In this document: positions 14,566 to 44,058 of the stretch, in pieces
How the letters are laid out: each line of letters starts with the position of its first letter
Position numbering within the stretch: position 1 is the first letter of the stretch
Assembly: GCA_946894095.1 (NCBI GenBank)
Contig: OX335642.1
Span: 9,187,021 to 9,251,020, forward strand
Length of the DNA stretch: 64,000 bases
Reading direction: 5' to 3'
Origin: Incurvaria masculella
Lineage: Eukaryota; Arthropoda; Insecta; Lepidoptera; Incurvariidae
Translations under genes and position numbers: made by a program
The notes under the pieces: model-generated
Told to the model about the DNA's origin: nothing
Database searches by the model: none
The model's input: only the letters and a program-made list of their open reading frames with translations

Positions 14566-14581
14566 TTAACATCGCTTTGTG

Positions 14582-14983: not shown

Positions 14984-14992
14984 CCGGTCTTT

Positions 14993-20205: not shown

Positions 20206-20298
20206 ATGAAATTCGTGCCTCCCCGCAAGGCCTCGCGCCCAGCGGCTGCCCTCAGCTCGCCTCCAGCCACCGCACCTCCCGCTGCCATCGCTTCTACC
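20206..20298 (+). CDS. PRDM9-like exon 1
   Basis: The ATG at 20206 opens [20 protein letters not shown] and further Ala/Pro-rich sequence ending IAST, then GTAAGC. It is 31 codons, phase 0. Low-complexity composition makes family recognition impossible; it is chosen because its GC-rich open frame and donor fit the downstream exons. Confidence 0.55.
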
Positions 20299-23200: not shown

Positions 23201-26200
23201 GATTTCCAGAGGAGTAGGCACAAATGATGAAGCACCATAGGGCATAATTCTACTGCTTCTACCACATACACTAGGACTTGATGAAATTTTTCGATAAGAT
23301 CAGGTACTTAGCCCTGTAATAGTAGAGCATGTATAAATGTATGTATCTCTATAGAGGAAGTAACAGGAGTACCTATGCTGTGACCGTACCGCATAGCGCT
23401 TTATCATCTCTGCCTACTCTTCTGGGAAATATTTGTATTTTTTTGGTCTTTCTGAAACACGGTTTGCTTGGATTTTCACTGTTAGTATACATGCATAATA
23501 TTTATTTTAAAGTAACCAATGAACAATATAAGGCTTACTTTGCCCATCGGGGGGCTACCATGGTAAGTTTACTCGCTGGGTGAACAGGCAAGTGAGTTAT
23601 TTAATCTGGTTTTGTTGCATTTTGACCACGCTGACTGTCAAACGATGTGTTATTCGGCCAAATAAACTAAAATTTACCCTTTAGCATGGTACTAAATGAA
23701 ACTAAACGTCAGATATAATCACTCATTTGTTCATTCACCCGTGTCAATTTACTATGGTAACCCCCCTGGTCATAGTACAACTCTGCATGTGGAGACTATC
23801 CTTTCTCTCTCATCACATTCTTGAAACAACATCTGTCCAGGCGGTGGACACCGCTACAACTGCCGGCCGCATCGCCCCGTGTGCTATGTCGACTATGAAG
23901 AACCTGATTTCGACGAATTTATATGTGAGTTCTATATAGCAAATTGTATGCTAGATAAAAATAATTACAAACTTAAAAGGAGAAAATGTGAAGTCTTCCA
24001 TTCTACCTTTGGAAGATATGTAAAACATTCAACTGTACACAAAGGAAAAATATATTAATCATTAAAGTCATGGTAAATCATTTGTGGCAGCTGTGACAGA
24101 ATGCTTTTGCAATGTACTAACCCTAGAAAGTGCAATGCACTATCATCTTGCTGATCTTCTGATCGTTGTAAGTCTGATCTTACTGTCAGACTTACTACGA
24201 GTCATATATTGCATGTATATTTTTGTGAACACTCCTACTGTACATACTTTGTCTTTGTACGGTCTAAATACTTGACGTAGAATCATTCGTTTGTTTCACT
24301 TTCGTTTTTATATTATTGTAGGTTACCCTCTTCTCAAAACACATGTCCTGTTCTTCATACAAACCCAACTTCATAGATAAATAGAAACCGTATTATGGAG
24401 TGTGTGCACTAGGCGACGAACCGCTCAAAAAATCTTATCATACAAGTATTTTTTTAACCGCTCAATGATACAATGTGATCTGAGTGGGCAGTCTGAGTTC
24501 TTACCGAAATTGGCGTTTACGGCAAACCGATCGACTGGCGTTTTCTCTAAACTCCATAAAAGTTTTTACTAGATATTCTGTGGTTTTACTTCTTCAAGCT
24601 GTCAAAGTCAAACGCGGACTTCCGATTTGTATGAAAACGCGGAGTGGACGTAAACGGCAACGTCGACGTATTTACGGCAACGTTGAGTAAGCTGTCAAAT
24701 CAAGCTCGGACTCGCAAATGTTAGTTCGCTTAACGCCCGCTGCGCGCGCTCTTCAATTTCTCCATACATTTGAAAACGCCAGTCGATCGGTTTGCCGTAA
24801 CGCCAATTTAGGTGACAACTTAGACTACCGGCTCAGGCCATGTCATCAACATATTAAAACAACAAAACATTTCTGTATATATTTGTTATGTTTTGATTGC
24901 AATCAAAACATTTCTGTATATATGCGTCATTATGGTACACATAAGTGTTCCTGACATTAAATTTTAATTTATCTGCATATGCTTATATTTGACCATAGCT
25001 CTAACAAAGAACATTATAAACATTTTACACTTCTTATGGTAAATAACCTTAAATAAAATGTTATAGACAAAATAACACAATTATTTACGGATAACAAACC
25101 TTTTGCATCATTTCATTTATTAAAACTTTTTTGGTAGGCAAAATACAACTAAGCTACGTCATAAACTGAATGATGATTCGATCAACTCAGTGAAGAAGAA
25201 CCCGCAAAGAAACTTTACGAGTTTTCCGTCCATCCTTGTACACTAAGAGCCTCAAACTAAACTATTACCTCTTATCTACCTACCTATCCTTGGTGCTCTT
25301 GTTCCCTCTTGTAGATCCAGTGCCAATGTCTGCAGTGTTTACGTGCTCTATTTAACTCATGGGGAAGCGCTATTAGTAATCTAATTGTGAGATGACTTAG
25401 TGAAGTTTGATTACCAGAAGTTGAATGATTAAACGTACTGAAATTAAATAAAAACAATCATACCACCACCAATCTCTGAGTACCCGCCCTCCAGCCTGCT
25501 AACTCCTCGTGTGTTGTGTGGGTGTGCAGATTGCGAGCAGTGTGCCGACTATGTGTACGAGTACTGCTCCATACACTTGCCGCTCATCGTGCTGCCCGAC
25601 CACAAGGTGAGTCTCTCTGATGTACTCAACTTTGAGTAGATACACACATACAAGTTAATGTTCCACCAGAGGCATAGCAGTCTGCGTCAAAAATGTCGAC
25701 CCCTCTATAGGATTGACAGTTGTTGTCAAACAAGAAAAATAAATTTGTGGTTGGGACGGTCTGCACCTTGAAAGTTATTGGAAACGCTCAACAAAATATG
25801 CATTGCATGCATATTGGAAGGTAATTGATTGTAGTCATGGATCAACCTAATTTTATAAATGAACTTCTGAATCAATTTGAATCCTCACACCTAGGCATAC
25901 TGAACATAAACAATGCTATAAAAATATTCTAAGAAGCACATTATTAGTTGGTATTTCGGTAGCAATTACAATACCTTTCCGAAATATATTGCCTAATTGG
26001 TAATATTGTGAAATATTTGGTGAAAACAATACAGCATACCTATGACAGCAGACTAGCGATCCTCAACTTTTTATTTTTTTTATTATTGTCTCGATACACT
26101 AGCAGCTTAAAGCTGATGCGTGTACATCTGAGTTGGTAACTGGGGGTGCACTTGTTTTTTTTTTTTTTTTTATTCCTATAAAAAGTCTAAAGTTTATGAT

Positions 26201-29200
26201 TTTTTGTATAAGTGTCAAGTTTGTTTTTAAAGCTGTTCACTGAAGCGGCAATAATCACTTCCTCCGGGAGCCTGTTGTAATATATTGAGCAAATTTACAA
26301 AATACTTTACAAGTAATACCATTTACTTTTTGTTGTAGAAGATGAACTTCTACCCAAGTGTTTAACAGCTTCTCTTTAAAAGCGATGAAATAGTTGCGAC
26401 TTTTTTGCGATATCAGAAAATATTCAAGATACCGCAGTGATAAAGACAAACCTCATGTTGAGTATCGGTGTCTGGTAATGGTTGCCCTTGCCGGCACACT
26501 CCCCGCAGGTTCCGGAGCAGATCGACAACTTCAACCTGACGCGCGCCGAGCTCTCCCTCCCCACTCCCTTCCTGCACATCGCCCCCTCCACCATACCAGG
26601 TACAACCGACACCGTTCCTTATCTGGCCCAAATCTCCCTCACCTGACCCGACCAGGAGGGGTTTGCAGTTAGAACTTCAGGTCGGACTGTTGTGATCAGG
26701 GTACTGGGGATGTTTCCAAGAGCCTTCTCTAGGGTACTTAAGGCCGCGTATGAAGCTAGACAAATTCCCGATTTCCCCCCCACCGCTCCGCTAGACGCCG
26801 AAGCGGCAGTGGCGCCGTGAATCTTAGGATAAAACTGAAATGAGATATTGTTAGAGCGACACCTATACGCCGTCGCTGGAACTTCGTGAAAGTTGTATCG
26901 ATCCCGCGGCAAGTCGTCAATGATCATACAACCAATCACAAGGCTCGAGATCACCCGCCATATTATTCACATTGCTGCTAGAAAACAGCAACCATTTCGT
27001 CAGATCTCTACTTCATGAAAGGATTTACTATTTTCACATTAATCGTCAGTAGCTGGTTGGTGTAGCGCGTGAAACGTCTTATCTACAGTTATTGTTCGAT
27101 GGGGGATGTCGGTTCGAATCCTGTAGGTTACAAATTTTTTTTTCTGTTTTTTTTTACTTTTTATTGTTAATGGTGTATAGTATATAATTATAGCGTGGGT
27201 TAGACTTAATTGATTTACACATATAAAAAAATATTACATAATAATAGGTTTTGGTAAAAGTTTTTACCTGATTAACAATTTTAAAAAGTATAAACGTCAT
27301 TTGATACAATAAAAAGTAAAATAACACTTTTAAAAAGGATAAACGTGAGACGATGGAGAAATAATTTCCATGCAACGAGCGCGCAAAAAATGACGCCACG
27401 CGACTTACAACATTATATCGCCGTTCATAGCGCCGTAGCGCAGTGATGAAAACGGAGAAAAATCTAATTTTTTGTCTCCCAAATTGATAGGTAAATTGAT
27501 AAAAATAAGAATTATTTTTCAATAAACCTGATGGTCGTTACGTCATTATTCATTAGTAGTGAGAGCCGAAACAAAAGCCAAATTCCTCCTGCGGCACAAG
27601 TGAAGTAAATTTACTTTTTTGTACTAAGCAGGTACCTACGTCGCTTATTCCAAGGAATGTGACAAGTAGTGTCGACACTTTTTAGGGTTCCGTACCCAAA
27701 GGGTGAAAACGGAACCCTATTACTAAGCCTCTGCTCTCCGTCCGTCCGTCCATCCGTCCATCCGTCTGTCCGTCCGTCCGTCCGTCCGTCCGTCCGTCCG
27801 TCCGTCCGTCCGTCCGTCCGTCCGTCCGTCCGTCCGTCCGTCCGTCCGTCCGTCCGTCTGTCACAGGGCTCTATCTCATGAACCGTAATAGGTAGGCAGC
27901 TGAAATTTTCACAGAGTGTGTATTTATTTTGCCGCTATAACAACAAATAGGTAAATTAAAAAAATATATAAAAATTAAAGGGGGGGCCATACAAAAGTAA
28001 CGTGATTTTTGGTGTTGATGGTACGGAACCCATCGTGTGCGAGTCCGACTCGCACTTGGCCCGTTTTTTTAGTTCACTTTGCTCTCCTGTGGTCGCCTGG
28101 TATGCAGTATCCTCTATTTAGCTGCTATTTGCCGCGGCAGCGAGTGCCGCGTCTTTTGTCGTTTGAACATCTTTTTTTCGACGTTGGCGACGTTGTCGTC
28201 GTTGTTCGTCGTTGTTGATGTCGAAAACGGAACCCTATTACTGCGTGCAATTGTATTCGGTGCGGTGCGTACCTAGTTATGCGCAATATGCGCTGCTCGT
28301 CGATTGTGCGCGGCGCGTACAATTGCGTGAGGTCGCGTATGCGCGCTCGTCGATTGTATCTCGTTCACTCGCGTCAGTCGCGCGGTCGCCCCGCGCCGAA
28401 GTGTCTTATAATATTTGGACGCTCGTCCGCTTCGCTGTAGCGCCACAGAGCAGCGCTGTGCAACAATCGAATAACGTAGATTTGTATTCGAATGAATCGA
28501 ATAACGGGAACAATCGAATAATTCGATTGTTTTTGTTCGCAATCGCCTATCGCTAGTCTACGACCAGTGTTTCCAATGATAAAACGAAAACAAATTTTGA
28601 CATGACAGACAGGTAGATTAGGTCGGGGCGTTTATTTTGAGTGGTCGCATGATGGGTCTACGACCAGTGTTTCCCATGATATAACGAAAACAAATTTTGA
28701 CATGACAGACAGGTAGATCAGATCGGGGCTTGATGGGTTTGACATGACAAACAGGTAGATCAGGTCGGGGCGTTTATTTTGAGTGGTCGCATGATGGGTC
28801 TAAGACCAGTGTTTCCCATGATGTAACAAAAAACTATTTTGACATGACAGACAGGTAGATTGTCGCATGATGGGTCTACTACCAGTGTTTCCCATGATAT
28901 AACGAAAACAAATTTTGACATGACAGGAAGTTAGACCAGGTCGGGGCATTTATTTTGAGTGGTCGCATGATGGGCCTACGACCAGTGTTTCCCATGATAT
29001 AACGAAAACAAATTTTGACATGACAGGAAGTTAGACCAGGTCGGGGCATTTATTTTGAGTGGTCGCATGATGGGCCTACGACCAGTGTTTCCCATGATAT
29101 AACGAAAACTAATTTTGACATGACAGGTAGATCAGGTCGGGGCGTTTATTTTGAGTGGTCACATGATGGGTCTAAGACCAGTGTTTCCCATGATATACCA

Positions 29201-32200
29201 AAAAAAAATTTGACATGACAGACGGGTAGATCAGGTCGGGACTTTTACTTTGAGTGGTCGCATCATGGGTCTACGACCAGTGTTTCCCAAGATATAACGA
29301 AAACTAATTTAGACATTACAGACGGGTAGATCAGGTCGGGACGTTTACTTTGAGTGGTCGCATCATGGGTCTACGACCAGTGTTTCCCAAGATATAACGA
29401 AAACTAATTTTGACATGACAGACAGGTAGATCAGGTCGGGGCGTTTATTTTGAGTGGTCGCATCATGGGTCTACGACCAGTGTTTCCCAAGATATAACGA
29501 AAACTAATTTTGACATGACAGACAGGTAGATCAGGTCGGGGCGTTTATTTTGAGTGGTCGCATGATGGTTCTACTACCAGTGTTTCCCATGATATAACGA
29601 AAAAAAATTTTGACATGACAGGAAGTTAGATCAGGTCGGGGCGTTTATTTTGAGTGGTCGCATGATGGGTCTGCGACCAGTGTTTGCCATGATGTAACGA
29701 AAACTAATTTTGACATGACAGACAGGTAGATCAGGTCGGGGCGGTTATTTTGAGTGGTCGCATGATGGGTCTAAGACCAGTGTTTCCCATGATGTAACAA
29801 AAAACAATTTTGACATGACAGACAGGTAGATTGTCGCATGATGGGTCTACTACCAGTGTTTCCCATGATATAACGAAAAAAAATTTTGACATGACAGGAA
29901 GTTAGATCAGGTCGGGGCGTTTATTTTGAGTGGTCGCATGATGGGTCTGCGACCAGTGTTTGCCATGATGTAACGAAAACTAATTTTGACATGACAGACA
30001 GGTAGATCAGGTCGGGGCGGTTATTTTGAGTGGTCGCATGATGGGTCTAAGACCAGTGTTTCCCATGATGTAACAAAAAACAATTTTGACATGACAGACA
30101 GGTAGATTGTCGCATGATGGGTCTACTACCAGTGTTTCCCATGATATAACGAAAAAAAATTTTGACATGACAGGAAGTTAGATCAGGTCGGGGCGTTTAT
30201 TTTGAGTGGTCGCATGATGGGTCTGCGACCAGTATTTCCCATGATATAACGAAAACTAATTTTGACATGACAGACAGGTAGATCAGGTCGGGGCGTTTAT
30301 TTTGAGTGGTCGCATGATGGGTCTACGACCAGTGTTTCCCAAGCTATAACGAAAACAAATTTTGACATAACAGACAGGTAGATCAGGTCCGGGCGTTTAT
30401 TTTGAGGGGTCGCATGATGGGTCTACGACCAGTGTTTCCCATGATATAACGAAAACAAATTTTGACATGACAGGAAGTTAGACCAGGTCGGGGCGTTTAT
30501 TTTGAGTGGTCGCATGATGGGCCTACGACCAGTGTTTCCCATGATATAACGAAAACTAATTTTGACATGACAGACAGGTAGATCAGGTCGGGGCGTTTAT
30601 TTTGAGTGGTCGCATGATGGGTCTAAGACCAGTGTTTCCCATGATATAACAAAAACTAATTTTGACATGACAGACAGGTAGATCAGGTCGGGGCGTTTAT
30701 TTTGAGTGGTCGCATGATGGGTCTAAGACCAGTGTTTCCCATGATATAACAAAAAAAAATTTGACATGACAGGAAGTTAGATCAGGTCGGGGCGTTTATT
30801 TTGAGTGGTCGCATCATGGGTCTACGACCAGTGTTTCCCAAGATATAACGAAAACTAATTTAGACATGACAGACGGGTAGATCAGGTCGGGGCGTTTATT
30901 TTGAGTGGTCGCATGATGGTTCTACTACCAGTGTTTCCCATGATATAACGAAAAAAAATTTTGACATGACAGACAGGTAGACCAGGTCGGGGCGTTTATT
31001 TTGAGCGGTCGCATGATGGGTCTACGACCAGTGTTTCCCAAGATATAACGAAAACTAATTTAGACATGACAGACGGGTAGATCAGGTCCGGGCGTTTATT
31101 TTGAGTGGTCGCATGATGGGTCTACGACCAGTGTTTCCCATGATATAACGAAAACAAATTTTGACATGACAGGAAGTTAGACCAGGTCGGGGCGTTTATT
31201 TTGAGTGGTCGCATGATGGGCCTACGACCAGTGTTTCCCATGATATAACGAAAACTAATTTTGACATGACAGACAGGTAGATCAGGTCGGGGCGTTTATT
31301 TTGAGTGGTCGCATGATGGGTCTAAGACCAGTGTTTCCCATGATATAACAAAAAAAAATTTGACATGACAGGAAGTTAGATCAGGTCGGGGCGTTTATTT
31401 TGAGTGGTCGCATCATGGGTCTACGACCAGTGTTTCCCAAGATATAACGAAAACTAATTTAGACATGACAGACGGGTAGATCAGGTCGGGGCGTTTATTT
31501 TGAGTGGTCGCATGATGGTTCTACTACCAGTGTTTCCCATGATATAACGAAAAAAAATTTTGACATGACAGACAGGTAGACCAGGTCGGGGCGTTTATTT
31601 TGAGCGGTTGCATGATGGGTCTACGACCAGTGTTTCCCATGATATAACGAAAACAAATTTTGACATGACAGACAGGTAGATCAGGTCGGGACGTTTACTT
31701 TGAGTGGTCGCATCATGGGTCTACGACCAGTGTTTCCCAAGCTATAACGAAAACAAATTTTGACATGACAGGAAGTTAGAACAGGTCGGGGCGTTTATTT
31801 TGAGTGGTCGCATGATGGGTCTACGACCAGTGTTTCCCATGATGTAACGAAAACAAATTTTGACATGACAGGGAAGGTAAATCAGGTCGGAGCGTTTATT
31901 TTAAGTGGTCGCATGATGGGTCTACGACAAATGTTTCCCCAGATATAGCGAAAACATATTTGGTCATGACATGACATGTACAACACATGAAATTGAACTG
32001 AACCGTTCCTCCGAGATTAATATTGGAGTTTCTTTTCGTCATAGAATTTATTTTATTTTATTTTATTATATTTTTAATTTTTATTATAATTTTATTTTAG
32101 CTATTTGTTGTTATAGCGGTAAAATAAATACACACTCCGTGAACATTTCAGCTGCCTACCTAAGGCCCTGTGACAGACGGACGGACGGACGGACAGCGGA

Positions 32201-35200
32201 GGCTTAGTAATAGGGTTCCGTTTTCACTTGGGTACGGTAGCCTGAAAACGAACCAACAAAACAAAACATATTATTTATGTCATTTATTCTTTTCACGGAG
32301 TTTTCCTTCTGTTCATGTTATTAATTATTCTGTGCCGCCGACAAAAACTACAAAAATCCGCCCGCCGAGCTATCTGCCAAGGTCATGTGACTTGTCCTGT
32401 TGCGACCCGTCCGCAATGGACGTACTTGCAGACGCACGTTCCACGGGGAGGCGGATATTTGCGGCCGCCCCAATACTCGTAGTGCCCGCTAGGCTTGAGA
32501 AGGAGAATTTAGCATAATTACGTAACGACAGTCGTGGCACAATGGTTTTAGTGTCGTATTTTTGCTGCGAATTTGAGAATCACACATATCGAAGTTCGGT
32601 TCCTGGAAACATCTCTTTTTTTATATTATAACAAATATTTTATTTATTTATTATATTTTTATTTATTTATATTTTGCTAACCGAACGTTACTAACCAGTG
32701 TCAATTATTTCGGCTTTAGACCTCAATAACATTTGATTGAGAATTTTACAGCGCCATCTATGAAGTTCAGCTGATGCTCGTAGGAATTTGGTTCGGAACT
32801 TTGTTACTGTCGCGATCCCGAAAGCGATCTCCGCGTGCGGAGAGTCGTGCGGAGAGGCGTGCGCCCGCTTCGAAACATCGCAGCGGACTGAGGCTACCGA
32901 AATGGCGATAGATAGTCGCCAAGAGAACGAAAGGGAAAGGGATACTTCACGGTGCTCAGAAATTTTGTCGTAAGTCCAAAATTCATTTTTTTGATGCTTT
33001 GAATGAAAAATTGTGTCCAAATGCAATAATAATCATTCAAAAATTTGAAAATCATGATGCAAATATAATGTGAGATTACTAGCACTGTAATTAATACCAA
33101 TTCTGAGAAATAAAGCATAATGTGAAAAAATCGACCTATTTTCGCGATTTTTTTCTATCGGGTCAATGTTATGATATTGGAACAATAATCATTCAGATTA
33201 AGCGGATATAAGTGAAGTTTCATATCACGCAATTTTAGCATGATTAGTTCAATATTCTCTGAGAAATTAAGACAAAGCTAAGTGCGATTTAGCGTCATAC
33301 GGAGCCTTAATGGTATAAGGTTCCCAATGATAGCCCAGCAAAGGTTACTGGCATTTGGTAGCACAGGTAAGAGTATGCTGTTGACAGACAAGCGAGTGCA
33401 TCCGGGCTTCCCTTGGGTTTTATGAGCGAAGCGTGTCGCGAGGCAACTAAGCTGTCGCTCTCGCCAGGTTTATCGGTCTGGTCTGCAACTCCATGTAGGC
33501 ATCTGAATTAAAAGTGCTAGTTGTGGAGCAACCAGTCATGTTTTTCTTGCAACCAGACAGGGATTGCTAATACCACACAACACCGTTATGATATTAGCTC
33601 AATTTCTTTCAATTCGTTTGTTTCTCTGTTCTACAATATACATATACTGCTTCGTCCTACTACTTTTGCTAAACTTGTGAAATACGAAGCTGGACTAACA
33701 ATATATTAAAACTTATATTAAGTTTTCTATGTTACTCTGTTTGTTTTTCCTAAAATAAATAAATAAATAAAAATCAATACACCACATCCCCGAAGGAATT
33801 AGGTGCCATGCCAGGCCCTTTCCTTTATGAGCACAGCTACACTGAACTGGATGGAAAACACGGACAGTTTTTTAATTGCCTCTTCAAGCATAGTTACATC
33901 CAATGTGGTGGTACAACCCGGGCTCAACCCTACCGCTTAGTAGGGAAAGAGTACTTACAATTTTACATGGGTTCCGAACCATGGAACAGCTCGCATTTGT
34001 AATGAAACGCACTTATCCAACTCAGAAAGAGACAGAAAGTGGTTCATAATTGGGGCTAGGATTTGACCCATAACCTCTCCAATGAAAGGCAAGTCCTCTA
34101 GCCCCTGCACCTTGAGCTGTACACCACGAGCGATGTCATAAATTACCGAAAAATATTCTTATTCAAAACACCCCTGCGCTATTTCTTATACCTTTTTAGT
34201 CCTACATGCTTTTTTATCATACATGTCCAGTCCCACAGAAATGTGTTTCGCCCACTGTCCTTGTATCTTCCATTGATAATGATATTATTATTATAAAATC
34301 ATAAACTTTAGTAAATTGCCTACAAATCTAACCTAACCTAACATAACTGATCTATGTCCAGTAAAAGTTCAGTGAGTTCACTATACAGGGTGTTGTAACG
34401 GCGCAGACGTTGTGAAATAATGATGTATGACGTATTTGTGTACAGGAGCTGGTTTGGGCGTGTTCACCACGTTGCCGATGCCCAAGGGAGTAAGGTTCGG
34501 GCCCTACAAGGGAGAGCTCCAGCCGGACAACGACAACAGCCCCTACTCGTGGAAGGTGAGTTGTTGCAGACTCTCGGCAGTGCAGGAGCTGGTTTGGGCG
34601 TGTTCGCCACGTTGCCGATGCCCAAGGGAGTGAGGTTCGGGCCCTGGAAGGGAGAGCTCCAACCGGACAACGACAACAGCCCCTACTCGTGGAAGGTGAG
34701 TTGTTGCAGACTCTCGGCAGTACAGGAGCTGGTTTGGGCGTGTTCGCCACGTTGCCGATGCCCAAGGGAGCGAGGTTAGGGCCCTGCAAGGGAGAGCTCC
34801 AGCCGGACAACGACAACAGCCCCTACTCGTGGAAGGTGAGTTGTTGCAGACTCTCGGCAGTACAGGAGCTGGTTTGGGCGTGTTCGCCACGTTGCCGATG
34901 CCCAAGGGAGCGAGGTTCGGGCCCTACAAGGGAGAGCTCCAGCCGGACAACGACAACAGCCCCTACTCGTGGAAAGTGAGTTGTTGCAGACTCTCGGCAG
35001 TACAGGAGCTGGTTTGGGCGTGTTCGTCACGTTGCCGATGCCCAAGGGAGCGAGGTTCGGGCCCTACAAGGGAGAGTTCCAGCCGGACAAGGACAAAAGC
35101 CCCTACTCGTGGAAGGTGAGTTGTTGCAGACTCTCGGCAGTACAGGAGCTGGTTTGGGCGTGTTCGCCACGTTGCCGATGCCCAAGGGAGCGAGGTTCGG

Positions 35201-38200
35201 GCCCTACAAGGGAGAGCTCCAGCCGGACAAGGACAACAGCCTCTACTCGTGGAAGGTGAGTTGTTGCAGACTCTCGGCAGTACAGGAGCTGGTTTGGGCG
35301 TGTTCGCCACGTTGCCGATGCCCAAGGGAGCGAGGTTCGGGCCCTACAAGGGAGAGCTCCAGCCGGACAACGACAACAGCCCCTACTCGTGGAAGGTGAG
35401 TTGTTGCAGACTCTCGGCAGTACAGGAGCTGGTTTGGGCGTGTTCGCCACGTTGCCGATGCCCAAGGGAGCGAGGTTCGGGCCCTGCAAGGGAGAGCTCC
35501 AGCCGGATTACGACAACAGCCCCTACTCGTGGAAGGTGAGTTGTTGCAGACTCTCGGCAGTACAGGAGCTGGTTTGGGCGTGTTCGCCACGTTGCCGATG
35601 CCCAAGGGAGCGAGGTACGGGCCCTACAAGGGAGAGCTCCAGTCAGACAAGGACAACAGCCCCTACTCGTGGACGTTGAGTTGTTGCAAACTCTCGGCAT
35701 TCAACCTAATGTTACTCAGGTTATCATCATAGGTTAGTAGGTAGAGAATGCCCTGAAACAAAATAAAAGGAAAGCTCATGGAAGTCATCATTATATATCA
35801 TTCTGTCCCGGCGTCTATTTTCAACACTTCAAACCGTACAGTCTAATAATCTACACTGTGACTATGAGCTATTTTATTTTAAGAGGACCACTACAACGAA
35901 TTTGACTGAAAAACCTTGTTGCCTTGGCCATCCTTTATTCAATGCAGTGATACTGACCTGGGTGGGCTTAACAATACCGCCTAGTACGTAGAGCAGGAAC
36001 CTTCAGTATGACAGGTCTCTTGAACCATAAAGTAACTAATTGCACATTTATACTAATATATTCAAGCTGAAGAGTTTGTAGGTTTTTTATAACACACCGG
36101 AATGAATGAAAAATAATTTTAGCATTTGAGCCCAATTCTTAACGAAGGTTATATATTTATTATTTAATATAATCCTACGACCTTTTGGAGCTGAGCAAAA
36201 AGGCATGAAGTCAGAAAGAGCCCAAAGCGAAAGCAATCGCTCGGGCGGACGAGGCGACGATGTGGATCGGGCTCAGAGAGTGCCTTTTACAGGGCCCTGC
36301 ACTGGTGATTATCCAATATTCCCAGCTCTGACCCGAGCAGAGCTGGGAACCTCCGCTATCTTGGATATAACAAAGAGGTCCGCATCATACATTCAACAAT
36401 CTTCACAGCTAGTGTACATGTTTCTGTGATTCCAGATCCACGGAACTTCAATGAGGAAGGATTGCCTGATCAACGCCGAGGATCCGAACAAGTCAAACTG
36501 GATGCGCTACGTTAATTGTTCGCGCAACTGGTTCGAGCAGAACTTGGCGGCTTTTCAGTATCAGGGCCAGATATACTACAGGTAATTAGCACGACTTACG
36601 GTGACTTGCCTTCCATCCCAGAGGTCTGGATTCAAATCCATGCTCAGTTCTCACACCACTTTCTCGTATCTTTCTGAGTTGCATAAGTGCCTTTCGTTAT
36701 AAATGCGAGCTATTCCATTGTTCGGAATCCATGTAAAAATTTAGGTCTCTTCCCCCTACTAGGGGGTAGGGTTAAGCCCGCCCAGAATATAATAATTAGC
36801 CGTGTTTTAAATTAATTTCCATGCTCATAAAGGGAAGGTCTTGGCATAGCAATGTGGTGTGTAAGACTAATATCATGACGGTGAGTGAAATATTTGCCAT
36901 CCATGTGCAGTCACATAATAAAAAGATTTACCTGAAGCATATACATTTTATTTGGAAATCAAAAGTAAAACATGGAAATGTTTTCCCACTACTTAAAAGT
37001 ACAAAGCTTCTTGCTACAGTCCAAAAGCGTATTAAAAAACGCAGAAAGAAATTAATAGATACATTCCACTGTGAAACACTAGACTACAGACTGCATTGAA
37101 CTCATTGGTTTATCGTTCTGGATGTAGGTCCGACACTGTTGGTATGCATTGATTACGAGAGGAGGGACCGTATGACTGTTAGAGCGAATGGCGAAATTGG
37201 TAGGCGCAATACCCGCGAAAGGTGGTAGAAGCCGTGTTGATGATCGCTAAGAAGTTCATTGCTCTCTAGATACTTCATCAACTGAGAGTTAATGATGCGC
37301 TCCATCACTTTGCAGAGGTAATGGCTATGGGACGGTAGTTGGCCGGGTCTGATCGTTCGCCTTTTTTAGGCACGGGCTGAACGTTGGCCGATTTCCAAGC
37401 AGCAGGCACACATCCAGTAGAGTAGGACAGGCGGTAAAGGCGGGTCAGAACAGGGGCTAATTCTGGAGCACATTTCTTCAACACCAACGCAGGAATACCA
37501 TCCGTACAGCTCTCTGGCGGAATTGTATGCTCGGCATAGAGAATTCGCACCCAGGAATCATCCAGGCGAGAGTTTCCCGCAAAGATGCCCACGAGAAGGT
37601 CGGCCTTCTCTTTGGCGAAAAAAGCGAGTGATAAAGCGAATACTAAACGTATATAGTGGTACTAATTATTATATTTTTTAATGCAACCTGACATAGATGG
37701 CTAATACCACACATAGTTATGATATTAGCCCAATTCCCGAAGGAATTAGGTGCCATGCCAGGACCTTCCCTTATATGAGCACGGCTACATTGAACTGTAT
37801 GGAAAACACGGACAATTTTTCATTGCCACTTCGACCATCTTTCATCCAATGCGATGGTATCAAACCGGGCGGACTTAAACCCTACCACCTCGAAGGGGAA
37901 AGGGACCTATAGTTTTACATGGATTCCGAACCATGGAGCAGCTCGCATTTGTGACGAAATGCATGTATCTAACTCAAATTGAGAAATAAAATGGTGCATA
38001 AACAGGGCGAGGATTCGAACCCAGACCTTTGGAGGCCTATTCAGGTAAGAGTGAGTTCGAGTTCGGGAGTGAGTTACTGGGACATAACAGATTTTTACCA
38101 AACTGTATTGATGTTCAAGAAGTGTGGAAAAATTGACTATTTAAAAAAGTGAGTTGATATTTAATGACGAATTCAAACTCACCCTTACCTGAATGGACCC

Positions 38201-41200
38201 CTTAGTATGCTAGTCTAGTCCCCGCACCACTAGGCTACGAGCCGCACATATATCTATACACATAATACATAAATATATAATAGTCACTCGAAGCACATTA
38301 TGTGCTGCAGGACAATCAAGAACATCCCGCGAGGCCGCGAGCTGCTCGTGTTCTACGGAGGGGAGTTTGCCGAGCGGCTCGGCATCGACCTGCTCATGTA
38401 CAACGCTCCCCGGGTCACCCACACTGGTAAACATACTTCATCTTATGAACGCTAGTTAGTTAGTTAGTTGGGCAAAATGTTTTCCGCGCTAAGCCTACTT
38501 CAGAGAAATGAACATTATATTATATACTAGCAGCCCGTCCCGGCTTTGCACGGGCATAATATCATTTAAAACAATATTATTTTGACACAATGATACACAA
38601 ATAAACCCTTTTTACGTAGATTTACCCTTTTTACCTACATTGAAATATTTGAAATAAAAAAAAACTTAGATATTATTATTAGACCGATCGCTGCTAAATT
38701 CAAAGTGCTATAGGGAGAACGGCGGCCTCCGACGCACTATTTATAGGCCTCCCGTCGCCCCGACCGGCCGGTACCGCCGCAAACGCTACGTCCCGCAATT
38801 TTTTAATCTGTAATATCTTGTGTTGTAAAGGGCCATATAGATCTATATTAAATCAACAATGTATTTAAGGTATTTAATTGGATAAGGATTAATCCTGTAT
38901 TGGTTAAAATAGCTTCGAAAATTAGCCATTATTTGTCGTAAAAAGTAAATGACAAAAAAATTTTATTGTGGGATATCCATAAGAGATAGACATATACCAT
39001 CTCGGAGTTTTCTGTAGACCTTTTAAATGTGTACAATACATAGTAAATTATTTTGAAAAATCTCGTAGGGTTCAGCCTGCGTTTGCATGTAGTAATAATG
39101 TTTTAATTATGATGTTCTTTGTGAGCAGTAGTAATCAATCAATCACTGTAAACTAGTTTGTAAGTATTAATGGAAAAAATATACAATGACCAACCTGATG
39201 AAGTTTCTGGTCGGCTCTTCTTCGCCAGAAGTATCCGAACCAATAGGAAAAAAAAGGGAAAAAATATTACGAATCCGAGTGTGTAATATACATCTAAAAG
39301 GGAAACTGAAACAAATGAGGCCATTGTGCGGAACAAAAGTGACTATGTAAGTCAGCCCAGCTCGTCCCAGAAGTCCAGCATACCCTTTACATTCCCACAG
39401 GCCTCTGTAAGAGATCCCAATGCTCTCAGGATCTGCCCCCGTTGGTCGGCCACACTCTTGCACTCCAACATTACATGGGCGGTTGTTTCCGTTGTCTCCA
39501 TGCAGCCACGACATAGAGGGCTGTCCGTTCCCCCAAGTTATGGAGGTGCTTTTTAAACAAATAATGTCCAGTCATTGTTCCCACCATTGTGCGTAGATCA
39601 TTTCTCTTCAGATGCAAAAGCTTGTGCGGAGGCTCCCTTACTCTGGCTTGCCTGCAATCTACCAGGTGTTTCCATTCGGTATTTTTTTTCGGTAGTTTTT
39701 TAATCGAAAAAGTTAAGGAACGCTAGGTTATGATTGGGTAAACTACTGGTTTAGTTTACCGAATCATATCCGTATAGGTGTCTTTGCCTGTCCACACAAT
39801 GTGACTATGACACAATAGTGTCAGTCTTTCCCTGTAAGAGGGCTGTGTTTGTGTGTCCTCTTGGAACCCTACCGCGTGTTAAGGTTCTGACAATGGCAAT
39901 GCCGGCCGTGTAGATGTAAAGGTAGTCCTATGCGTGCAGTGTCAGCGATTAAGGCGACGAAGTGGGGCTACCATGGTAAATTATCTCGCAGGGTGAACAG
40001 GCAAGGGAGTGATTAAATTTGACATTTAGTTGCATTTTGTACCGTCATAATTGCTAAACTTCAGTTCACTTGACCGTATAACACATTGTCAGTTAGCATG
40101 CTACGAAATGCCAGTAAACGTAATCTTCATCAGTAATTGTCAGTACACTCGGCGAGTTAATTTATCATGGTAATTAAATAGGGAGCGACGCCAGCAGCAC
40201 TAAGACGCCGAACATCGAGCGTCGATTGGTGAGGAACCGAACTGTGATCTGTATCTTGGATACTTTAGGGTTCCCTGCTGACAATTGGCGTCCCACCAGC
40301 GCAGCACTGTATGAGATGAGACCGCCTGTAACACTATTTTACGGCCCGATTGCACCACGGCTAATCAAATGTTATCTGTTGTGATAAAATTTCATAGTGA
40401 AGCTAGTTGTTACAAGCTATCCCATACAATTACAGATTGATAATTTTCGCTTTTTTTTTTCAATTCCCAACTGAGGCAAGCATGGTTAGCAACACAGTTA
40501 TAATTTATTTTTGAAAAACATGTTTCCTTTGAATAAAACTTCATATCTTTAATATGTAAGGTACTATCATAAATATAATTAATCTATGGTACTATATTGT
40601 ATAAAGTTATAATCGTAGATATGACTTATTTTATAAGAACTCACATTAGGAAATAGTCCGTTGAGAATTTTCTAAGCGACAACTGACTACTTTTAAACTT
40701 TTTGTATGAATCTGTGAACCGGATGACTATTTACCATAATAGCCATACTTCTTTGCTGCGAAAAGCTGATTTTAACTATTTGTATCACAAAGTTGCATGT
40801 ACGGGAGTGTGCGGGCCGACGTTTCTACATGACCCTCAGCGGGGCGCGGTAGTGCCGCAGCCTGCTCGCGTTGACACATTGGTAAGTAACATCATGTGCT
40901 TATGAGGATAATGAGGTGATCAAGTTACATACAATGACTCGTGCCTGTTTCCTCAGTCAAAGTAAGATTTTTTTTGTGAAATTTTGCACATCAAGTAAAT
41001 CAACTGGGAACTACGTCTGTACGTTTTGGTTTTTTTGATAAGTTACCACCTTTTATTCATGATTAGAATCACACACTCAAAGGAATCTTCGGGCCGATTT
41101 TGATAAACAATAAATTCCATTTTGTGATGTAATGTTCAATGTTAACTACAGAAAAGTGTTAATTTTTAAAAAACTGATTCATATTTTCAAGTATTTATGC

Positions 41201-44058
41201 ATTACCCATACATTCAATTAAACAGTTTGGATTTTTTCGTTCTAAGTGTAGTTATTAATTATAAAGGACCTTAAACAATTAACATTCAGCTCTGCACATG
41301 CCTCCAAAGCATAACCTAAAAAGTGAAACTTACACAACTTTCTTCAAACCCTGGGAGAGAAGTTTGTAGCTGGCGGCGACTATAACACAAAGCACGCTGA
41401 CTGGGGATCAAGAATACAACTACGAAAGGAAGAGAACTTAAAAAGACATTCCTACAACTGAATCTAAAAGTTGCATCTACTGGCGAACCGACATACTGAA
41501 GTGCTATCAAAAAGAAACCACACTTTTTCTTTGCCAGTAAAGGTCTACTGATATCGTTCCTGAGTTGCAACTCTTGTTTTGAACTATCTTCTGATCACTC
41601 TGTTATACTAGCAGAGCTACACAACGGCTAAGGTTTTAAAAGAATTAGCTGACAACAGCATTGCATTCCTGACTACGTTATCCTAAGACAACAGTTCATC
41701 CCCACACAATGGAAAATAGCAGAAAACTCATACTTAAACCTGGCAAGGAACTTGATAATGTCGCTTCATATCGACCCATAAGTCTGCTTCCCATCACGTC
41801 CAAAGTTTTAGAAATTCTCCTCATGAGAAGGCTATCATCTGAGATTGCCACATCAGAACTCATTCCTTCGCATCAATTTGGATTGGATGGGCCAATGACG
41901 GGTTGCATAAAAAAAACCAATGTAAATTCTGTCAGCCTCGGTAGCCAAGTGGTGCGACGCCTGGCGATTCGATAAGCCGGTGGAAGCACCTCTGAGCGCG
42001 GTTGGGTTCTTGATGGGTGACCATTTTCAACCGTTGGGGCTGGCGGAGGTAAACATAAAACTGTAGGTCCCCTTTCATAATTACTAGGTAGTAGGGTTAA
42101 TCCCGCCCGGGTTGGTACCATCGCATTGAATGGACCATGGTCGAAGCGGCAATGAAAATTGTCCGTGTTTTCCATCCAGCTCAATGTTGCCGAGTAATGT
42201 ATAGAAGTTCCTGGTATGGCACCTAGTTTCCATGTGGTGTGTTAGGGTCATATTTGACGGCCAGTTTGGTATTAGCCTTCCATGTCCAGTTACAAAAAAA
42301 TTTGAAAATTGAACGATTATGCATTTGTAGCAAAAAATGTGAATACCTGTTTGTATTTATGTATTTATCTACATCTAACCTTCTTTGTGTAAAATTATTT
42401 ATACAGGGTGTCCCATAAGTCGACGATAAGCTAAGCTTTTTGTTTGCTACTTTATAGATATAAATACTATACTTACTTATTAAAGTCACTTACCAATGAT
42501 AAGACATTCCACTTTTGTGCACATTAATCTCGGCGGAATTGTTTTTTCACACATACACAGAGCACACGGGAATTTTAAACAGGAGCTAAAATCGTGAGCG
42601 CGGGCCGTCGGCAGACTAGCGAGCCAGCGTGCGATTACTATTAGGACGTGTTACACTGCCGCGCGCTGTGTTAGGCGCACATACCTGTTTTAACGTTCTT
42701 GATGATTTTAGTGATCATCTCAATATATAGATTTTTCCTTTTTTTTCAAGTCCAAGATTATTTTTATATTTTTCTGATAGCTGCTTGCTTACCCCTGATT
42801 TCACCACCTCCAGCTGCCGGAAATCCGATGGTTAGCTTTCGGATATTGAATATTTACATGGTGTAACCGAAAAATAACTTTGGGATCTTTGTAGCTGGAG
42901 GTGGTGAAAACGGTCGTTAGTCTATCACCTGCTTCCAGCTTATCGTCGACTTGTGGGACATACTGTATACCTGTACACTGTAATGCAAATATGTTTTGTT
43001 CAGTGACGTCATCATACATTTTTGTTTTATTCCAGAACCAAACGAAACCAAGCCCCACCAAGTTGCCGGCTCATATTCCTGAAGCACTTCTAATGCCTCA
43101 GGTTTCTACACATCTTAATGATATGAGTTTTCCAACATGTAACTCGGTTGATGTTAGTCTTAGCAACGTTAATCCAAGAAAGTTCATATGTGATTGTTGC
43201 CATAAGGTATTCTCATGGAAATCTAATTTGCTGGGTCACATGAGAGTACATAATCATAAAACATCTTTTCAAACCATCACTACATTTTCTCAAAAAGATC
43301 GAAACATAGCAAATCAAGGCGAAACCACGATCTTTCGTAATAAATCTTATTTGAATAAGCAAGTACATATTAGTGAGAATTCCTTACAGTGCAAATCTTG
43401 CAGCAGGAGATTTAATGATAGCTCGGTCTTAGTTTCGCACATACGAATCCGTACTGGTGAGAAACCATTTGAATGCAAATCATGCGGCAAGAGGTTTGAC
43501 ACCGGCTCATATTTGATTACGCATATGCGAATCCATACTGGTGATAAACCCTTTGAATGCAAATCTTGCGGCAAGAGGTTTACCCAGAAGATAAATTTGA
43601 CTAGACATATGCGAATCCATACTGGTGAGAAACCCTTTGAATGCAAATCTTGCGGCAAGAGGTTTAACAACGGCTCACATTTGACTAGACATATGCGAAT
43701 CCATACTGGTGAGAAACCCTTTGAATGCAAATCTTGCGGCAAGAGGTTTAACGACGGCTCACATTTGACTAGACATATGCGAATCCATACTGGTGAGAAA
43801 CCCTTTGAATGCAAATCTTGCGGCAAGAGGTTTAACACTAGCTCAAATTTGGCTACTCATATGCGAATCCATACTGGTGAAAAACCCTTTGAATGCAAAT
43901 CTTGCGGCAAGAGGTTTAACACTAGCTCAAAATTGGCTACTCATATGCGAATCCATACTGGTGAGAAACCATTTGAATGCAAATCTTGCGGCAAGAGGCT
44001 TAAAACCTGCTCAGATTTGACCACGCATTTACAAATCCATACTGATAAGCTTCTGTAA
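20206..44058 (+). CDS. PRDM9-like histone methyltransferase with C2H2 finger array, about 11 exons
   Basis: Nuclear protein predicted to bind DNA through zinc fingers and methylate histone H3 through its PR/SET domain; vertebrate PRDM9 marks meiotic recombination sites, but no such role is shown for insects. Exons: 20206-20298, 21011-21039, 21904-21923, 23841-23924, 25530-25606, 26509-26599, one of nine copies starting at 34446, 36436-36581, 38311-38426, 40793-40881, 43036-44058. All phases match, giving about 625 residues. SSXRD-like text lies at about 50-75, a zinc knuckle uses C77, C80, C88 and H91, and PR/SET spans about 115-255. Y152, Y216 and Y232 align with human PRDM9 Tyr276, Tyr341 and Tyr357; the 16-residue spacing of the last two is identical. 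Nine C2H2 fingers follow from about residue 335. No KRAB domain is visible. The tandem PR/SET exon is the oddity. The first three exons are the least certain. Confidence 0.85.
20840..21520 (-). mobile_element. Degenerate SINE body remnants in introns 1 and 2
   Basis: 20880-20940 (TCATTGAATGTGGTGGTATC, CCGCCCGGCATCTAGTAAGC) and 21410-21500 (GGTGCCATGTCGGCCTCTTC, AATGCTGCTTCTACCATG) are old copies of the SINE body flanking exon 2. Their decay suggests an early arrival compared with the copies at 5 and 16 kb. Confidence 0.5.
21011..21039 (+). CDS. PRDM9-like exon 2 (micro-exon)
   Basis: CCTCACAG|AGTACTGCACC ... GACCA|GTAAGT, 29 nt encoding STAPAAAD plus two bases of a Gln codon. The strong acceptor and donor and Ala-rich continuation of exon 1 support it. 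Confidence 0.5.
21904..21923 (+). CDS. PRDM9-like exon 3 (20-nt micro-exon)
   Basis: TTTCAG|GACGAGCGATGGTGCCTCAG|GTATTG. It completes the split Gln codon, encodes TSDGAS and leaves one base, matching the phase of exon 4. It is very short and so needs transcript support. Confidence 0.45.
23549..23766. mobile_element. Foldback MITE, family M1 copy 1
   Basis: GGGGGGCTACCATGGTAAGT at the left mirrors TTTACTATGGTAACCCCCC at the right. Inner motifs GGTGAACAGGCAAG and TTCATTCACCCG are also complementary. It lies 75 bp before exon 4 of the PRDM9-like gene. Copy 2 is at 39964-40175. Confidence 0.8.
23841..23924 (+). CDS. PRDM9-like exon 4: SSXRD-like stretch
   Basis: GTCCAG|GCGGTGG ... TTTATAT|GTGAGT. 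It encodes [20 protein letters not shown] then PDFDEFI. The RYN-R...Y...EP-D-D-Y pattern just before the knuckle matches the end of the SSXRD region of vertebrate PRDM9. Confidence 0.85.
24485..24834. mobile_element. Foldback MITE with about 65-bp terminal inverted repeats
   Basis: AAACCGATCGACTGGCGTTT (24524) mirrors AAACGCCAGTCGATCGGTTT (24774); outer parts GGGCAGTCTGAGTT and AACTTAGACTACCGGCTC pair with mismatches. Intron 4 of the PRDM9-like gene. No ORF. Confidence 0.8.
25530..25606 (+). CDS. PRDM9-like exon 5: zinc knuckle
   Basis: TGTGCAG|ATTGCGAG ... CACAAG|GTGAGT. It encodes [20 protein letters not shown] and VLPDHK. The C-x2-C-x7-C-x2-H spacing is the same as in human PRDM9's pre-SET knuckle. 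Confidence 0.9.
26509..26599 (+). CDS. PRDM9-like exon 6: start of the PR/SET domain
   Basis: CCCGCAG|GTTCCGG ... ATACCAG|GTACAA. It encodes [20 protein letters not shown], then [11 protein letters not shown], equivalent to the RSALSLPPGLRIGPSGIP segment of PRDM9. Phase 1 at the end matches every copy of the tandem exon. Confidence 0.9.
26600..28555. other. Intron 6, first part: dispersed repeats
   Basis: 27050-27130 has a tRNA-like GGTTGGTGTAGCGCG and GGTTCGAATCC (A- and B-box-like), probably a SINE head. 27340-27560 is an inverted copy of 55600-55810. 28130-28480 is rich in CGTCGT and GCGC motifs and is of unknown origin. Confidence 0.5.
27681..28075 (-). repeat. 'Lepidopteran CCGT' repeat, copy 7, with about 130-bp CCGT array
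   Basis: TTTAGGGTTCCGTACCCAAA at the start, a nearly pure (CCGT)n run at 27737-27858, and CTCGCACTTGGCCCGTTTTT at the end. It is the longest CCGT tract in the window. Confidence 0.85.
28556..31975 (+). repeat. Satellite array, 100-bp monomer, about 34 copies
   Basis: Monomer contains GTTTATTTTGAGTGGTCGCA, ACCAGTGTTTCCCATGATAT, TTTTGACATGACAGACAGG and GATCAGGTCGGGGC. The period is 100 bp over most of the array (for example 29411, 29511, 29611). Some monomers lack about 24 bp after GACAGGTAGAT, giving 76-bp units; two 100-bp plus one 76-bp monomers form a 276-bp higher-order unit repeated at about 29671 and 29947. Variants GGAAGTTAG and GACGGGTAG alternate. It fills part of intron 6 of the PRDM9-like gene, between exon 6 and the tandem exon 7. 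Confidence 0.95.
32097..32255 (+). repeat. 'Lepidopteran CCGT' repeat, partial copy 8
   Basis: TTTGTTGTTATAGCGGTAAA, GACGGACGGACGGACAGCGG and AGGGTTCCGTTTTCACTTGG, just after the satellite. Confidence 0.75.
32256..33539. other. Intron 6, second part; no gene seen
   Basis: 32525-32610 holds a weak tRNA-like pair of boxes (TGGCACAATGG and AGTTCGGTTCC). 32780-32975 is an open stretch of mixed composition, but I see no family motif and do not call it a gene. The rest is AT-rich. Confidence 0.4.
33540..34118 (-). mobile_element. SINE with tRNA-like head, copy 3, interrupted
   Basis: Tail at 33540 (ATTGCTAATACCACAC), body resuming at 33779 (ATTAGGTGCCATGCCAGG) and head at 34050-34118 (GAGGTTATGGGTCAAATCC on the minus strand). 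33601-33778 is an insertion ending in (AAAT)n. Confidence 0.75.
34446..34555 (+). CDS. PRDM9-like exon 7, copy 1 of 9 (PR/SET N-half)
   Basis: GTGTACAG|GAGCTGG ... TGGAAG|GTGAGT, 110 nt. It encodes [20 protein letters not shown] then [17 protein letters not shown]. It is the only copy whose acceptor is preceded by sequence outside the array, so it may be the ancestral or preferred one. Its Tyr in GPYKGE is the human Tyr276 equivalent. Confidence 0.88.
34446..35705 (+). repeat. Nine-copy tandem array of PR/SET exon 7 (140-bp unit)
   Basis: Exon copies start at 34446, 34586, 34726, 34866, 35006, 35146, 35286, 35426 and 35566; each is 110 nt, followed by 30 nt (GTGAGTTGTTGCAG... to TACAG). Copies 1-8 keep AG acceptors and GTGAGT donors. 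In copy 9 the donor is damaged (GGACGTTGAG). Residue at the GPY position: Tyr in copies 1, 4, 5, 6, 7, 9; Trp in copy 2; Cys in copies 3 and 8. Other changes: GARL in copy 3, VTLP and GEFQPDKDK in copy 5, SLYSW in copy 6, DYDN in copy 8, GARYG and LQSDK in copy 9. Copies 4 and 7 encode the same residues. 110 is 2 modulo 3, so splicing two copies together breaks the frame; reading through a unit meets stop codons. Single-copy, mutually exclusive use is inferred. Confidence 0.95.
35900..36040 (-). mobile_element. Degenerate SINE body in intron 7
   Basis: CATCCTTTATTCAATGCAGT and CTGGGTGGGCTTAACAATAC match the SINE body with many substitutions. Confidence 0.5.
36436..36581 (+). CDS. PRDM9-like exon 8: PR/SET core
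   Basis: ATTCCAG|ATCCACGG ... TACTACAG|GTAATT. It encodes [28 protein letters not shown], nearly the same as the [17 protein letters not shown]... core of vertebrate PRDM9. Tyr216 matches human Tyr341. Phase 2 at the end. Confidence 0.95.
36596..36925 (+). mobile_element. SINE with tRNA-like head, copy 4, decayed
   Basis: GGTGACTTGCCTTCCATCCC, a B-box-like GATTCAAATCC, CGAGCTATTCCATTGTTCGG and CCATCCATGTGCAGTCACAT in order. It starts 15 bp after exon 8. Confidence 0.75.
37140..37630 (-). pseudogene. LINE reverse transcriptase fragment (CR1/Jockey-like)
   Basis: On the minus strand, [60 protein letters not shown] and [10 protein letters not shown] are typical of LINE RT blocks 1-2. A one-base shift then leads to [29 protein letters not shown]. 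Both ends are lost, so it is a dead fragment in intron 8. Confidence 0.8.
37674..38245 (-). mobile_element. SINE with tRNA-like head, copy 5, with nested MITE
   Basis: Tail AATGCAACCTGACATAGATG at 37680, body through TGGAGCAGCTCGCATTTGTG, B-box GAGGATTCGAACCC at 38008, then an insertion (38030-38205) and the remaining head TAGGCTACGAGCCGC at 38231-38245. Confidence 0.8.
38030..38205. mobile_element. Small MITE with about 30-bp inverted repeats, inside a SINE head
   Basis: CTATTCAGGTAAGAGTGAGT at the left mirrors ACTCACCCTTACCTGAATGG at the right. It splits the SINE between its A- and B-boxes. Confidence 0.75.
38311..38426 (+). CDS. PRDM9-like exon 9: PR/SET C-half with catalytic Tyr
   Basis: GTGCTGCAG|GACAATC ... 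CACACTG|GTAAAC. It encodes [38 protein letters not shown]. The Tyr in VFYGGEF aligns with human Tyr357 (VWYGDEY). Confidence 0.95.
38525..39090 (-). repeat. Dispersed repeat, copy 2 (inverted partner of 62-605)
   Basis: Starts ACTAGCAGCCCGTCCCGGCT and includes CCGGTACCGCCGCAAACGCT, GCCATATAGATCTATATTAA and TCGTAGGGTTCAGCCTGCGT, all present in 62-605 on the other strand. Confidence 0.8.
39190..39690 (-). pseudogene. LINE C-terminal fragment (post-RT CCHC region)
   Basis: The minus strand encodes [18 protein letters not shown] and [13 protein letters not shown], then after a one-base shift [35 protein letters not shown]. This is the usual end of insect LINE proteins after the RT/RNase H region. 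Frameshifted and incomplete. Confidence 0.7.
39964..40175. mobile_element. Foldback MITE, family M1 copy 2
   Basis: GGGGCTACCATGGTAAATTA and CTCGCAGGGTGAACAGGCAA at the left; GGCGAGTTAATTTATCATGG at the right. It matches 23549-23766. Confidence 0.75.
40793..40881 (+). CDS. PRDM9-like exon 10: linker
   Basis: Encodes [30 protein letters not shown] and joins in phase to exons 9 and 11; donor TTG|GTAAGT. The acceptor could be ATCACAAAG (40792) or GGGAG (40807); both keep the frame and differ by five residues. No family motif is seen. Confidence 0.6.
41330..41900 (+). pseudogene. Jockey-like LINE remnant (endonuclease and RT pieces)
   Basis: 41333-41460 reads [25 protein letters not shown], an APE-type endonuclease motif. 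41709-41880 reads [44 protein letters not shown], an RT motif. The sequence between is decayed. The fragment ends in a SINE tail remnant (41885-41918). Confidence 0.75.
41931..42300 (+). mobile_element. SINE with 5S rRNA-like head, copy 4
   Basis: GTCAGCCTCGGTAGCCAAGT start, a degraded 5S-like head keeping TGATGGGTGACC, then the shared body and CCATGTCCAGTTAC plus A-run. Confidence 0.8.
42404..42965. mobile_element. 562-bp TIR element with TA target, next to the finger exon
   Basis: CAGGGTGTCCCATAAGTCGA mirrors TCGACTTGTGGGACATACTG; inverted repeats reach about 29 bp (24 matches). TA flanks at 42402-42403 and 42966-42967. It ends 70 bp before exon 11 of the PRDM9-like gene. An internal block (42835-42910) resembles 22255-22340 inverted. 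No transposase. Confidence 0.8.
43036..44058 (+). CDS. PRDM9-like exon 11: terminal exon with nine C2H2 fingers
   Basis: TTTATTCCAG|AACCAAACG starts 340 codons ending TAA. A linker of about 49 residues is followed by a divergent finger (CDCCHKVF...H), a second whose last His is Arg (HIRIR), then seven near-identical 28-residue fingers with [15 protein letters not shown] linkers at 84-bp spacing (Phe codons at 43468, 43552, 43636, 43720, 43804, 43888, 43972). Residues at helix positions -1/3/6 are T/Y/T, Q/N/R, N/H/R, D/H/R, T/N/T, T/K/T, T/D/T. The whole array in one terminal exon matches the PRDM9 plan. Confidence 0.95.

What the first reader, a model, noticed from the sequence alone, without database searches (positions are those of the whole stretch)
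34446..35705. Nine tandem, mutually exclusive copies of a PR/SET-domain exon
The sequence shows nine 110-nt exon copies at exact 140-bp spacing, eight with intact acceptor and donor. The 30-nt spacers are shorter than introns normally spliced in insects, 110 is not a multiple of three, and read-through meets stops, so joining copies is disfavoured by both size and frame. This would be a Dscam-like choice of exon inside a histone methyltransferase. I know of no such arrangement in a PRDM gene; it could also be non-functional expansion with one copy used.
Basis: partly seen in the sequence, partly recalled or inferred. Interest (0 to 1): 0.93.

Follow-up and report, generated by a model that had tools for sequence, protein, structure and literature searches.

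The report
Ninefold exon array in PRDM9-like gene
One exon of a gene resembling PRDM9, the enzyme that places genetic recombination in many animals, has been copied into a row of nine, but the row looks more like a decaying DNA repeat in which only the first copy has its original splice signal than like a menu of alternative exons.

Summary
The array is real: nine 110-nt exon copies at exact 140-bp spacing (34446-35675); all nine keep the acceptor AG, eight keep the donor. It is one exon of a partial PRDM9-like gene: knuckle, PR/SET, homogenised zinc fingers. A Dscam-like choice is not supported. (1) The unit starts 6 nt before the exon, so copies 2-9 lack the native upstream intron; the AG-free stretch before their acceptor is 3 nt, against 37 for copy 1 and 15-44 for six other exons. 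(2) Differences look neutral: 14 of 19 changes nonsynonymous, 14.3 expected. (3) The FGPY motif is altered in four of nine copies; the Y276 equivalent is lost in three. (4) No spacer-intron RNA pairing beyond shuffles in four tests. Most likely only copy 1 is used and copies 2-9 are a passenger minisatellite. Transcripts, relatives and the own genome could not be examined, so exon choice is not excluded. KRAB/SSXRD were not found, and the join to the zinc-finger exon is out of frame in my model.

The parts
23841..23924 (+). exon: pre-knuckle segment ([27 protein letters not shown])
   Evidence: acceptor/donor and frame; its end ([10 protein letters not shown]) aligns with the start of the PRDM9 chains
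25530..25606 (+). exon: PRDM9-type zinc knuckle ([15 protein letters not shown])
26509..26599 (+). exon upstream of the array, ends phase 1 (..STIPG), donor GTACAA
34440..35699 (+). 140-bp x 9 tandem array: 6 nt of acceptor + 110-nt exon + 24 nt downstream
   Evidence: TRF
34446..34555 (+). copy 1: only copy with the unique upstream intron; FGPY intact; donor GTGAGT
34586..34695 (+). copy 2: Y276-equivalent changed to W
34726..34835 (+). copy 3: FGPY changed to LGPC
34866..34975 (+). copy 4: one synonymous change from consensus at the last exon base (AAG to AAA)
35006..35115 (+). copy 5: A to V, L to F, N to K twice
35146..35255 (+). copy 6: N to K, P to L
35286..35395 (+). copy 7: identical to array consensus
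35426..35535 (+). copy 8: Y276-equivalent changed to C, N to Y
35566..35675 (+). copy 9: donor destroyed (ACG|TTGAGT), FGPY changed to YGPY; followed by the unique downstream intron
36436..36581 (+). exon: PR/SET middle ([27 protein letters not shown]341 equivalent kept)
38311..38426 (+). exon: PR/SET end ([13 protein letters not shown]357 equivalent kept)
43036..44058 (+). terminal exon with C2H2 zinc-finger array, 84-bp units
   Evidence: Pfam; TRF. Its frame does not join directly to 38426, so an exon or another splice site is missing in the model, or the gene is broken there

Best explanation
A PRDM9-like PR/SET + C2H2 zinc-finger gene in which a 140-bp stretch containing one 110-nt SET exon, 6 nt of its acceptor and 24 nt of its donor-side intron expanded in tandem to nine copies. 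Splicing most likely runs 26599 to copy 1 (34446-34555) to 36436: copy 1 alone has the original upstream intron, and its own donor is intact. Copies 2-9 are then removed as part of the following intron and drift neutrally, with some exchange between copies. Shown: array, gene context, truncated acceptor surroundings, neutral-like substitution pattern, altered motif and lost donor. Inferred: the actual splice choice, that the gene is expressed, and that copies 2-9 are unused.
For: Array and boundaries. AG-free zone before the acceptor: 37 nt for copy 1, 44, 33, 44, 21, 15 and 30 nt for the other six exons, 3 nt for each of copies 2-9. T-N-A motifs 15-45 nt upstream: four for copy 1, one for each of copies 2-9, which lies inside the previous donor (the six other exons have 1 to 4, so the number alone does not separate). 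14 of 19 distinct codon changes are nonsynonymous against 14.3 expected by simulation. FGPY is hit by 4 distinct changes, mean 1.6 expected, so not depleted (P of 4 or more = 0.056); 4 of 9 copies are affected. Copy 1 is unchanged at all 17 residues identical to human PRDM9 in this exon; 5 of the 8 other copies (2, 3, 5, 8, 9) are changed at one or two of them. Copy 9 donor is TTGAGT. Four-gamete pattern at sites 46 and 61 fits exchange between copies. The intron between 26599 and the array also holds a 100-bp satellite.
Against: Donors of copies 2-8 are GTGAGT like copy 1's; all copies have AG, and none has a stop in the PR/SET frame (no stop has P = 0.41 under neutrality). Pyrimidine counts do not separate copy 1 (9 of 17) from copies 2-9 (8 of 17), two of the six other exons also have 8, and copy 1 lacks a strict YTRAY branch consensus. 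Two regular exons (25530, 26509) also have only one T-N-A motif. Spacers vary less than exons (1 against 15 changes in copies 1-8, P = 0.11), which could hint at selection on spacers or diversification of exons. Copies 4 and 7 carry no amino-acid change from the array consensus, and copies 4, 6 and 7 are, like copy 1, unchanged at the 17 human-identical residues.
Confidence: 0.78

Rival explanations
1. Functional mutually exclusive exon cluster: one of eight copies is chosen per transcript, giving PR/SET isoforms, some with altered or no methyltransferase activity.
For: 110 nt is not a multiple of three, AG and GT are kept in eight copies, 30-nt spacers are very short for splicing neighbours together; arthropod Dscam shows that large clusters exist (PMC5740500, passages). 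Exons vary more than spacers, though not significantly.
Against: Copies 2-9 lack native acceptor surroundings; neutral N:S ratio; FGPY altered in four of nine; non-adjacent copies are 170 nt or more apart, so size does not enforce exclusivity; spacer-to-intron pairing not beyond shuffles: 11, 47, 56 and 94 of 100 shuffles as good or better in four tests.
Confidence: 0.08
2. Assembly or haplotype artefact: true copy number is one or few.
For: Tandem arrays are hard to assemble (general knowledge); no reads could be examined.
Against: Copies differ pairwise by 1-9 bases; copy 9 has its own donor loss and runs into unique flank.
Confidence: 0.07
3. The whole locus is a decaying pseudogene, so no copy matters.
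For: The frame does not join between exon 38311-38426 and the zinc-finger exon in my model and a Pfam scan found no extra exon; no KRAB or SSXRD found on the + strand of 4101-24001 or by motif on 1-24000.
Against: The PR/SET exons have AG/GT splice sites and join in one open frame; Y276, Y341 and Y357 equivalents are kept with copy 1; the zinc-finger ORF is open with eight regular fingers.
Confidence: 0.07

Closest known systems
PRDM9 (Meisetz) of vertebrates and some invertebrates
   Same: knuckle + PR/SET with the three named tyrosines + terminal exon of homogenised C2H2 fingers varying mainly at and around DNA-contact positions; best match among solved structures, 138.6 bits, against 83.7 for PRDM11
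   Different: no KRAB/SSXRD found in the stretches scanned; one PR/SET exon present nine times
Mutually exclusive exon clusters (Dscam type)
   Same: tandem homologous exons, frame-shifting length
   Different: copies 2-9 without native acceptor surroundings, no selector/docking signal found, neutral-like divergence, one dead donor
Tandem exon duplications, including unannotated ones (PMC9013439, passages)
   Same: exon copies lying in an intron beside the parent exon
   Different: nine copies in a regular 140-bp minisatellite; that paper reports expression for at least some of its unannotated copies, which cannot be tested here

Membership tests
PRDM9 | PR/SET domain closest to PRDM9 | tested here: met
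   comparison among solved structures only, the protein database was off
PRDM9 | catalytic tyrosines Y276, Y341, Y357 | tested here: met
   with copy 1; residues named in PMC5519329 (passages); numbering assumes that the 4ijd chain starts at residue 195 (recalled), and all three positions then fall on Y
PRDM9 | C2H2 array with diversity concentrated at DNA-contact residues | tested here: met
   share at -1,2,3,6 = 0.52 (6 units) or 0.60 (5 units); the separate first finger, the degenerate one after it and the shorter last finger were left out
PRDM9 | KRAB and SSXRD domains | tested here: inconclusive
   no Pfam hit at E up to 1 on + strand 4101-24001, no motif hit of note on 1-24000; diverged forms or exons outside the window possible
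PRDM9 | PR/SET and zinc fingers on one transcript | tested here: inconclusive
   frame mismatch in the model, no transcript data
Mutually exclusive exon cluster | each copy has complete splice sites | tested here: not met
   copy 9 donor dead; copies 2-9 AG-free zone 3 nt; simple motif counts, no trained splice model
Mutually exclusive exon cluster | joint inclusion breaks the frame | tested here: met
   110 nt
Mutually exclusive exon cluster | selector/docking RNA pairing (where used) | tested here: not met
   regions 33600-34439 and 35700-36435 only
Mutually exclusive exon cluster | alternative junctions in RNA | not testable with these tools
   no RNA data

The most novel reading that the evidence does not exclude
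A PRDM9 homologue that chooses among about eight SET exons, three of them lacking the Y276-equivalent tyrosine (two C, one W), so that splicing would switch its histone methylation strength or product specificity in meiosis.
Probability: 0.06. Interest if true: 0.92.

Novelty: new member of a known kind. Interest (0 to 1): 0.4.

Why it matters
If only copy 1 is used, this is a clear case of a coding exon captured by a minisatellite without loss of the normal transcript, because the expansion left the first acceptor and first donor intact; it shows how an exon array can mimic a Dscam cluster. The host gene itself, PRDM9-like with a homogenised finger array, bears on how widely PRDM9-type recombination control reaches among animals. 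If several copies were used, a recombination-specifying enzyme would have a splice-selected active site.

Tried and rejected
Docking/selector RNA pairing for the spacer: no excess over 100 shuffles in any of four tests; the upstream intron before 33600 was not tested. KRAB/SSXRD search upstream: none by Pfam or motif. Missing exon between 38426 and 43036: Pfam gave only the known PR end and weak reverse-transcriptase traces. Telomere-like repeat runs as a hint to the organism: none of three or more units. Literature on PRDM9 in insects or on exon duplication in PRDM9: ten searches; of titles and abstract openings listed I recognised none that describes this. The lists were capped in several (25 of 36, 12 of 207, 12 of 745, 25 of 35, 10 of 57, 3 of 7,866) and the library is partial, so this is no proof of absence. 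Selection for diversity (exons vary more than spacers): P = 0.11, not pursued.

Weak points: branch-point and AG-zone arguments are simple motif counts; the neutral test has only 19 changes, scored one site at a time against the array consensus (one of them, the second change in codon TAC of copy 2, scores as a stop alone but gives W in the real copy); direction of change is unknown without relatives.

Full report
Observation. The window holds a tandem array at 34440-35699: 9.0 units of 140 bp, 96% matches, 0% indels. Each unit has a 110-nt exon copy; copies 1-8 are followed by a 30-nt spacer beginning GTGAGT and ending ACAG (GCAG after copy 1). AG precedes all nine copies; eight of nine have GTGAGT, copy 9 has TTGAGT. 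Two frames, including the PR/SET frame, are open in all nine copies. Read-through from the PR/SET frame ends in the next copy or at its donor. Pairwise differences are 1 to 9 of 110. The finding's description is accurate, except that repeat similarity ends at 35699.

Gene. The copies are one exon of a partial seven-exon model: 23841-23924, 25530-25606, 26509-26599, 34446-34555, 36436-36581, 38311-38426, 43036-44058. The joined PR/SET part matches the Pfam PR domain of PRDM2 (E 1.6e-38) and SET (1.3e-10) and, among solved structures, PRDM9 best (138.6 bits; PRDM11 next at 83.7), with the match extending over the zinc knuckle. The three tyrosines that PMC5519329 (passages) names as catalytic in human PRDM9 are all present when copy 1 is used. 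The terminal ORF has eight regular C2H2 fingers; in six complete 28-residue units of the array 52% of amino-acid diversity lies at helix positions -1, 2, 3 and 6. PMC2779102 (passages) describes concerted evolution of PRDM9 fingers in sea anemone, snail and polychaete, and PRDM9 as lacking in the Drosophila melanogaster genome. PMC8835667 (passages) says that ancestral KRAB-A family members are known from protostomes such as insects and mussels. PMC13186367 (passages) says that full-length PRDM9 homologues occur in diverse animal clades including cnidarians and sponges. A PRDM9-like gene outside vertebrates is therefore not new in itself.

Limits of the gene model. KRAB and SSXRD were not found on the + strand of 4101-24001 by Pfam or on 1-24000 by motif. 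The exon at 38311-38426 leaves one base over, the zinc-finger exon is in phase 0, so a direct join is out of frame; a Pfam scan of 38300-43051 found no missing exon. The organism is unknown to me; the own-genome search was busy in 8 of 8 attempts and the protein database was off.

Splice anatomy. The repeated unit begins with GTACAG, 6 nt before the exon. Copy 1 has the unique intron upstream; copies 2-9 have the previous copy's donor and spacer instead. The AG-free stretch before the acceptor is 37 nt for copy 1, 44, 33, 44, 21, 15 and 30 nt for the six other exons, and 3 nt for each of copies 2-9. T-N-A motifs 15-45 nt upstream number four for copy 1, one for each of copies 2-9 (inside the previous donor), and one to four for the other exons, so the number alone does not separate. 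Pyrimidine counts are alike (9 against 8 of 17; the other exons 8 to 13), and a strict YTRAY motif occurs at one of 15 acceptors only, not at copy 1. The case against copies 2-9 thus rests on the competing AGs and on the only branch-like site lying in the previous donor. The duplicated segment kept the donor side, and copy 9, which is followed by the unique downstream flank, has lost its donor.

Exclusivity. The 30-nt spacer should prevent splicing of neighbours, but copies 1 and 3 would leave 170 nt. PMC5740500 (passages) lists short donor-to-branch distance and frame shift among proposed means of mutually exclusive splicing. Frame here disfavours inclusion of two or three copies. Pairing of the spacer, with and without 20-nt flanks, to 33600-34439 or 35700-36435 is matched or beaten by 11, 47, 56 and 94 of 100 shuffles.

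Selection. Against the array consensus there are 19 distinct codon changes, 14 nonsynonymous; simulation expects 14.3. FGPY is hit by four distinct changes, 1.6 expected, P = 0.056 for four or more, so it is not protected. The Y276 equivalent is W in copy 2 and C in copies 3 and 8; F of FGPY is L in copy 3 and Y in copy 9. Copy 1 is unchanged at all 17 positions identical to human PRDM9 in this exon; so are copies 4, 6 and 7. Absence of stops is uninformative (P = 0.41). Spacers of copies 1-8 carry one change against 15 in their exons, P = 0.11. Sites 46 and 61 show all four combinations, which suggests exchange between copies or repeated mutation.

Verdict. The simplest account is a minisatellite that captured an exon together with its donor but not its upstream intron. 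The first copy keeps the old acceptor and its own donor, so the normal transcript can be made and the rest is intron. The same intron carries a 100-bp satellite at about 28.6-32.0 kb. A working exon choice remains possible but has no positive evidence beyond AG, GT and frame.

Noticed in passing
28556-31980: A 100-bp satellite array (with 76-bp variants) fills over 3 kb of the intron upstream of the exon array.
   Followed up: no
43036-44058: PRDM9-type zinc-finger array with 84-bp units, 1 and 3 differences between two neighbouring pairs, variation mainly at and around DNA-contact positions.
   Followed up: partly
49643-53170: Long open frame of 1176 aa with a reverse transcriptase domain (RVT_1, E 6e-27): a retroelement, perhaps non-LTR.
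   Followed up: partly
5347-6286: Mariner/Mos1-type transposase pieces in two overlapping minus-strand frames, hence apparently frame-shifted.
   Followed up: no
1266-1754, 8149-8469, 9557-9850, 59429-59719: Trypsin-like serine protease pieces on the minus strand on both sides of the PRDM9-like gene.
   Followed up: no
38426-43036: Frame mismatch between the last PR/SET exon and the zinc-finger exon: a missing exon, another splice site or a break.
   Followed up: partly
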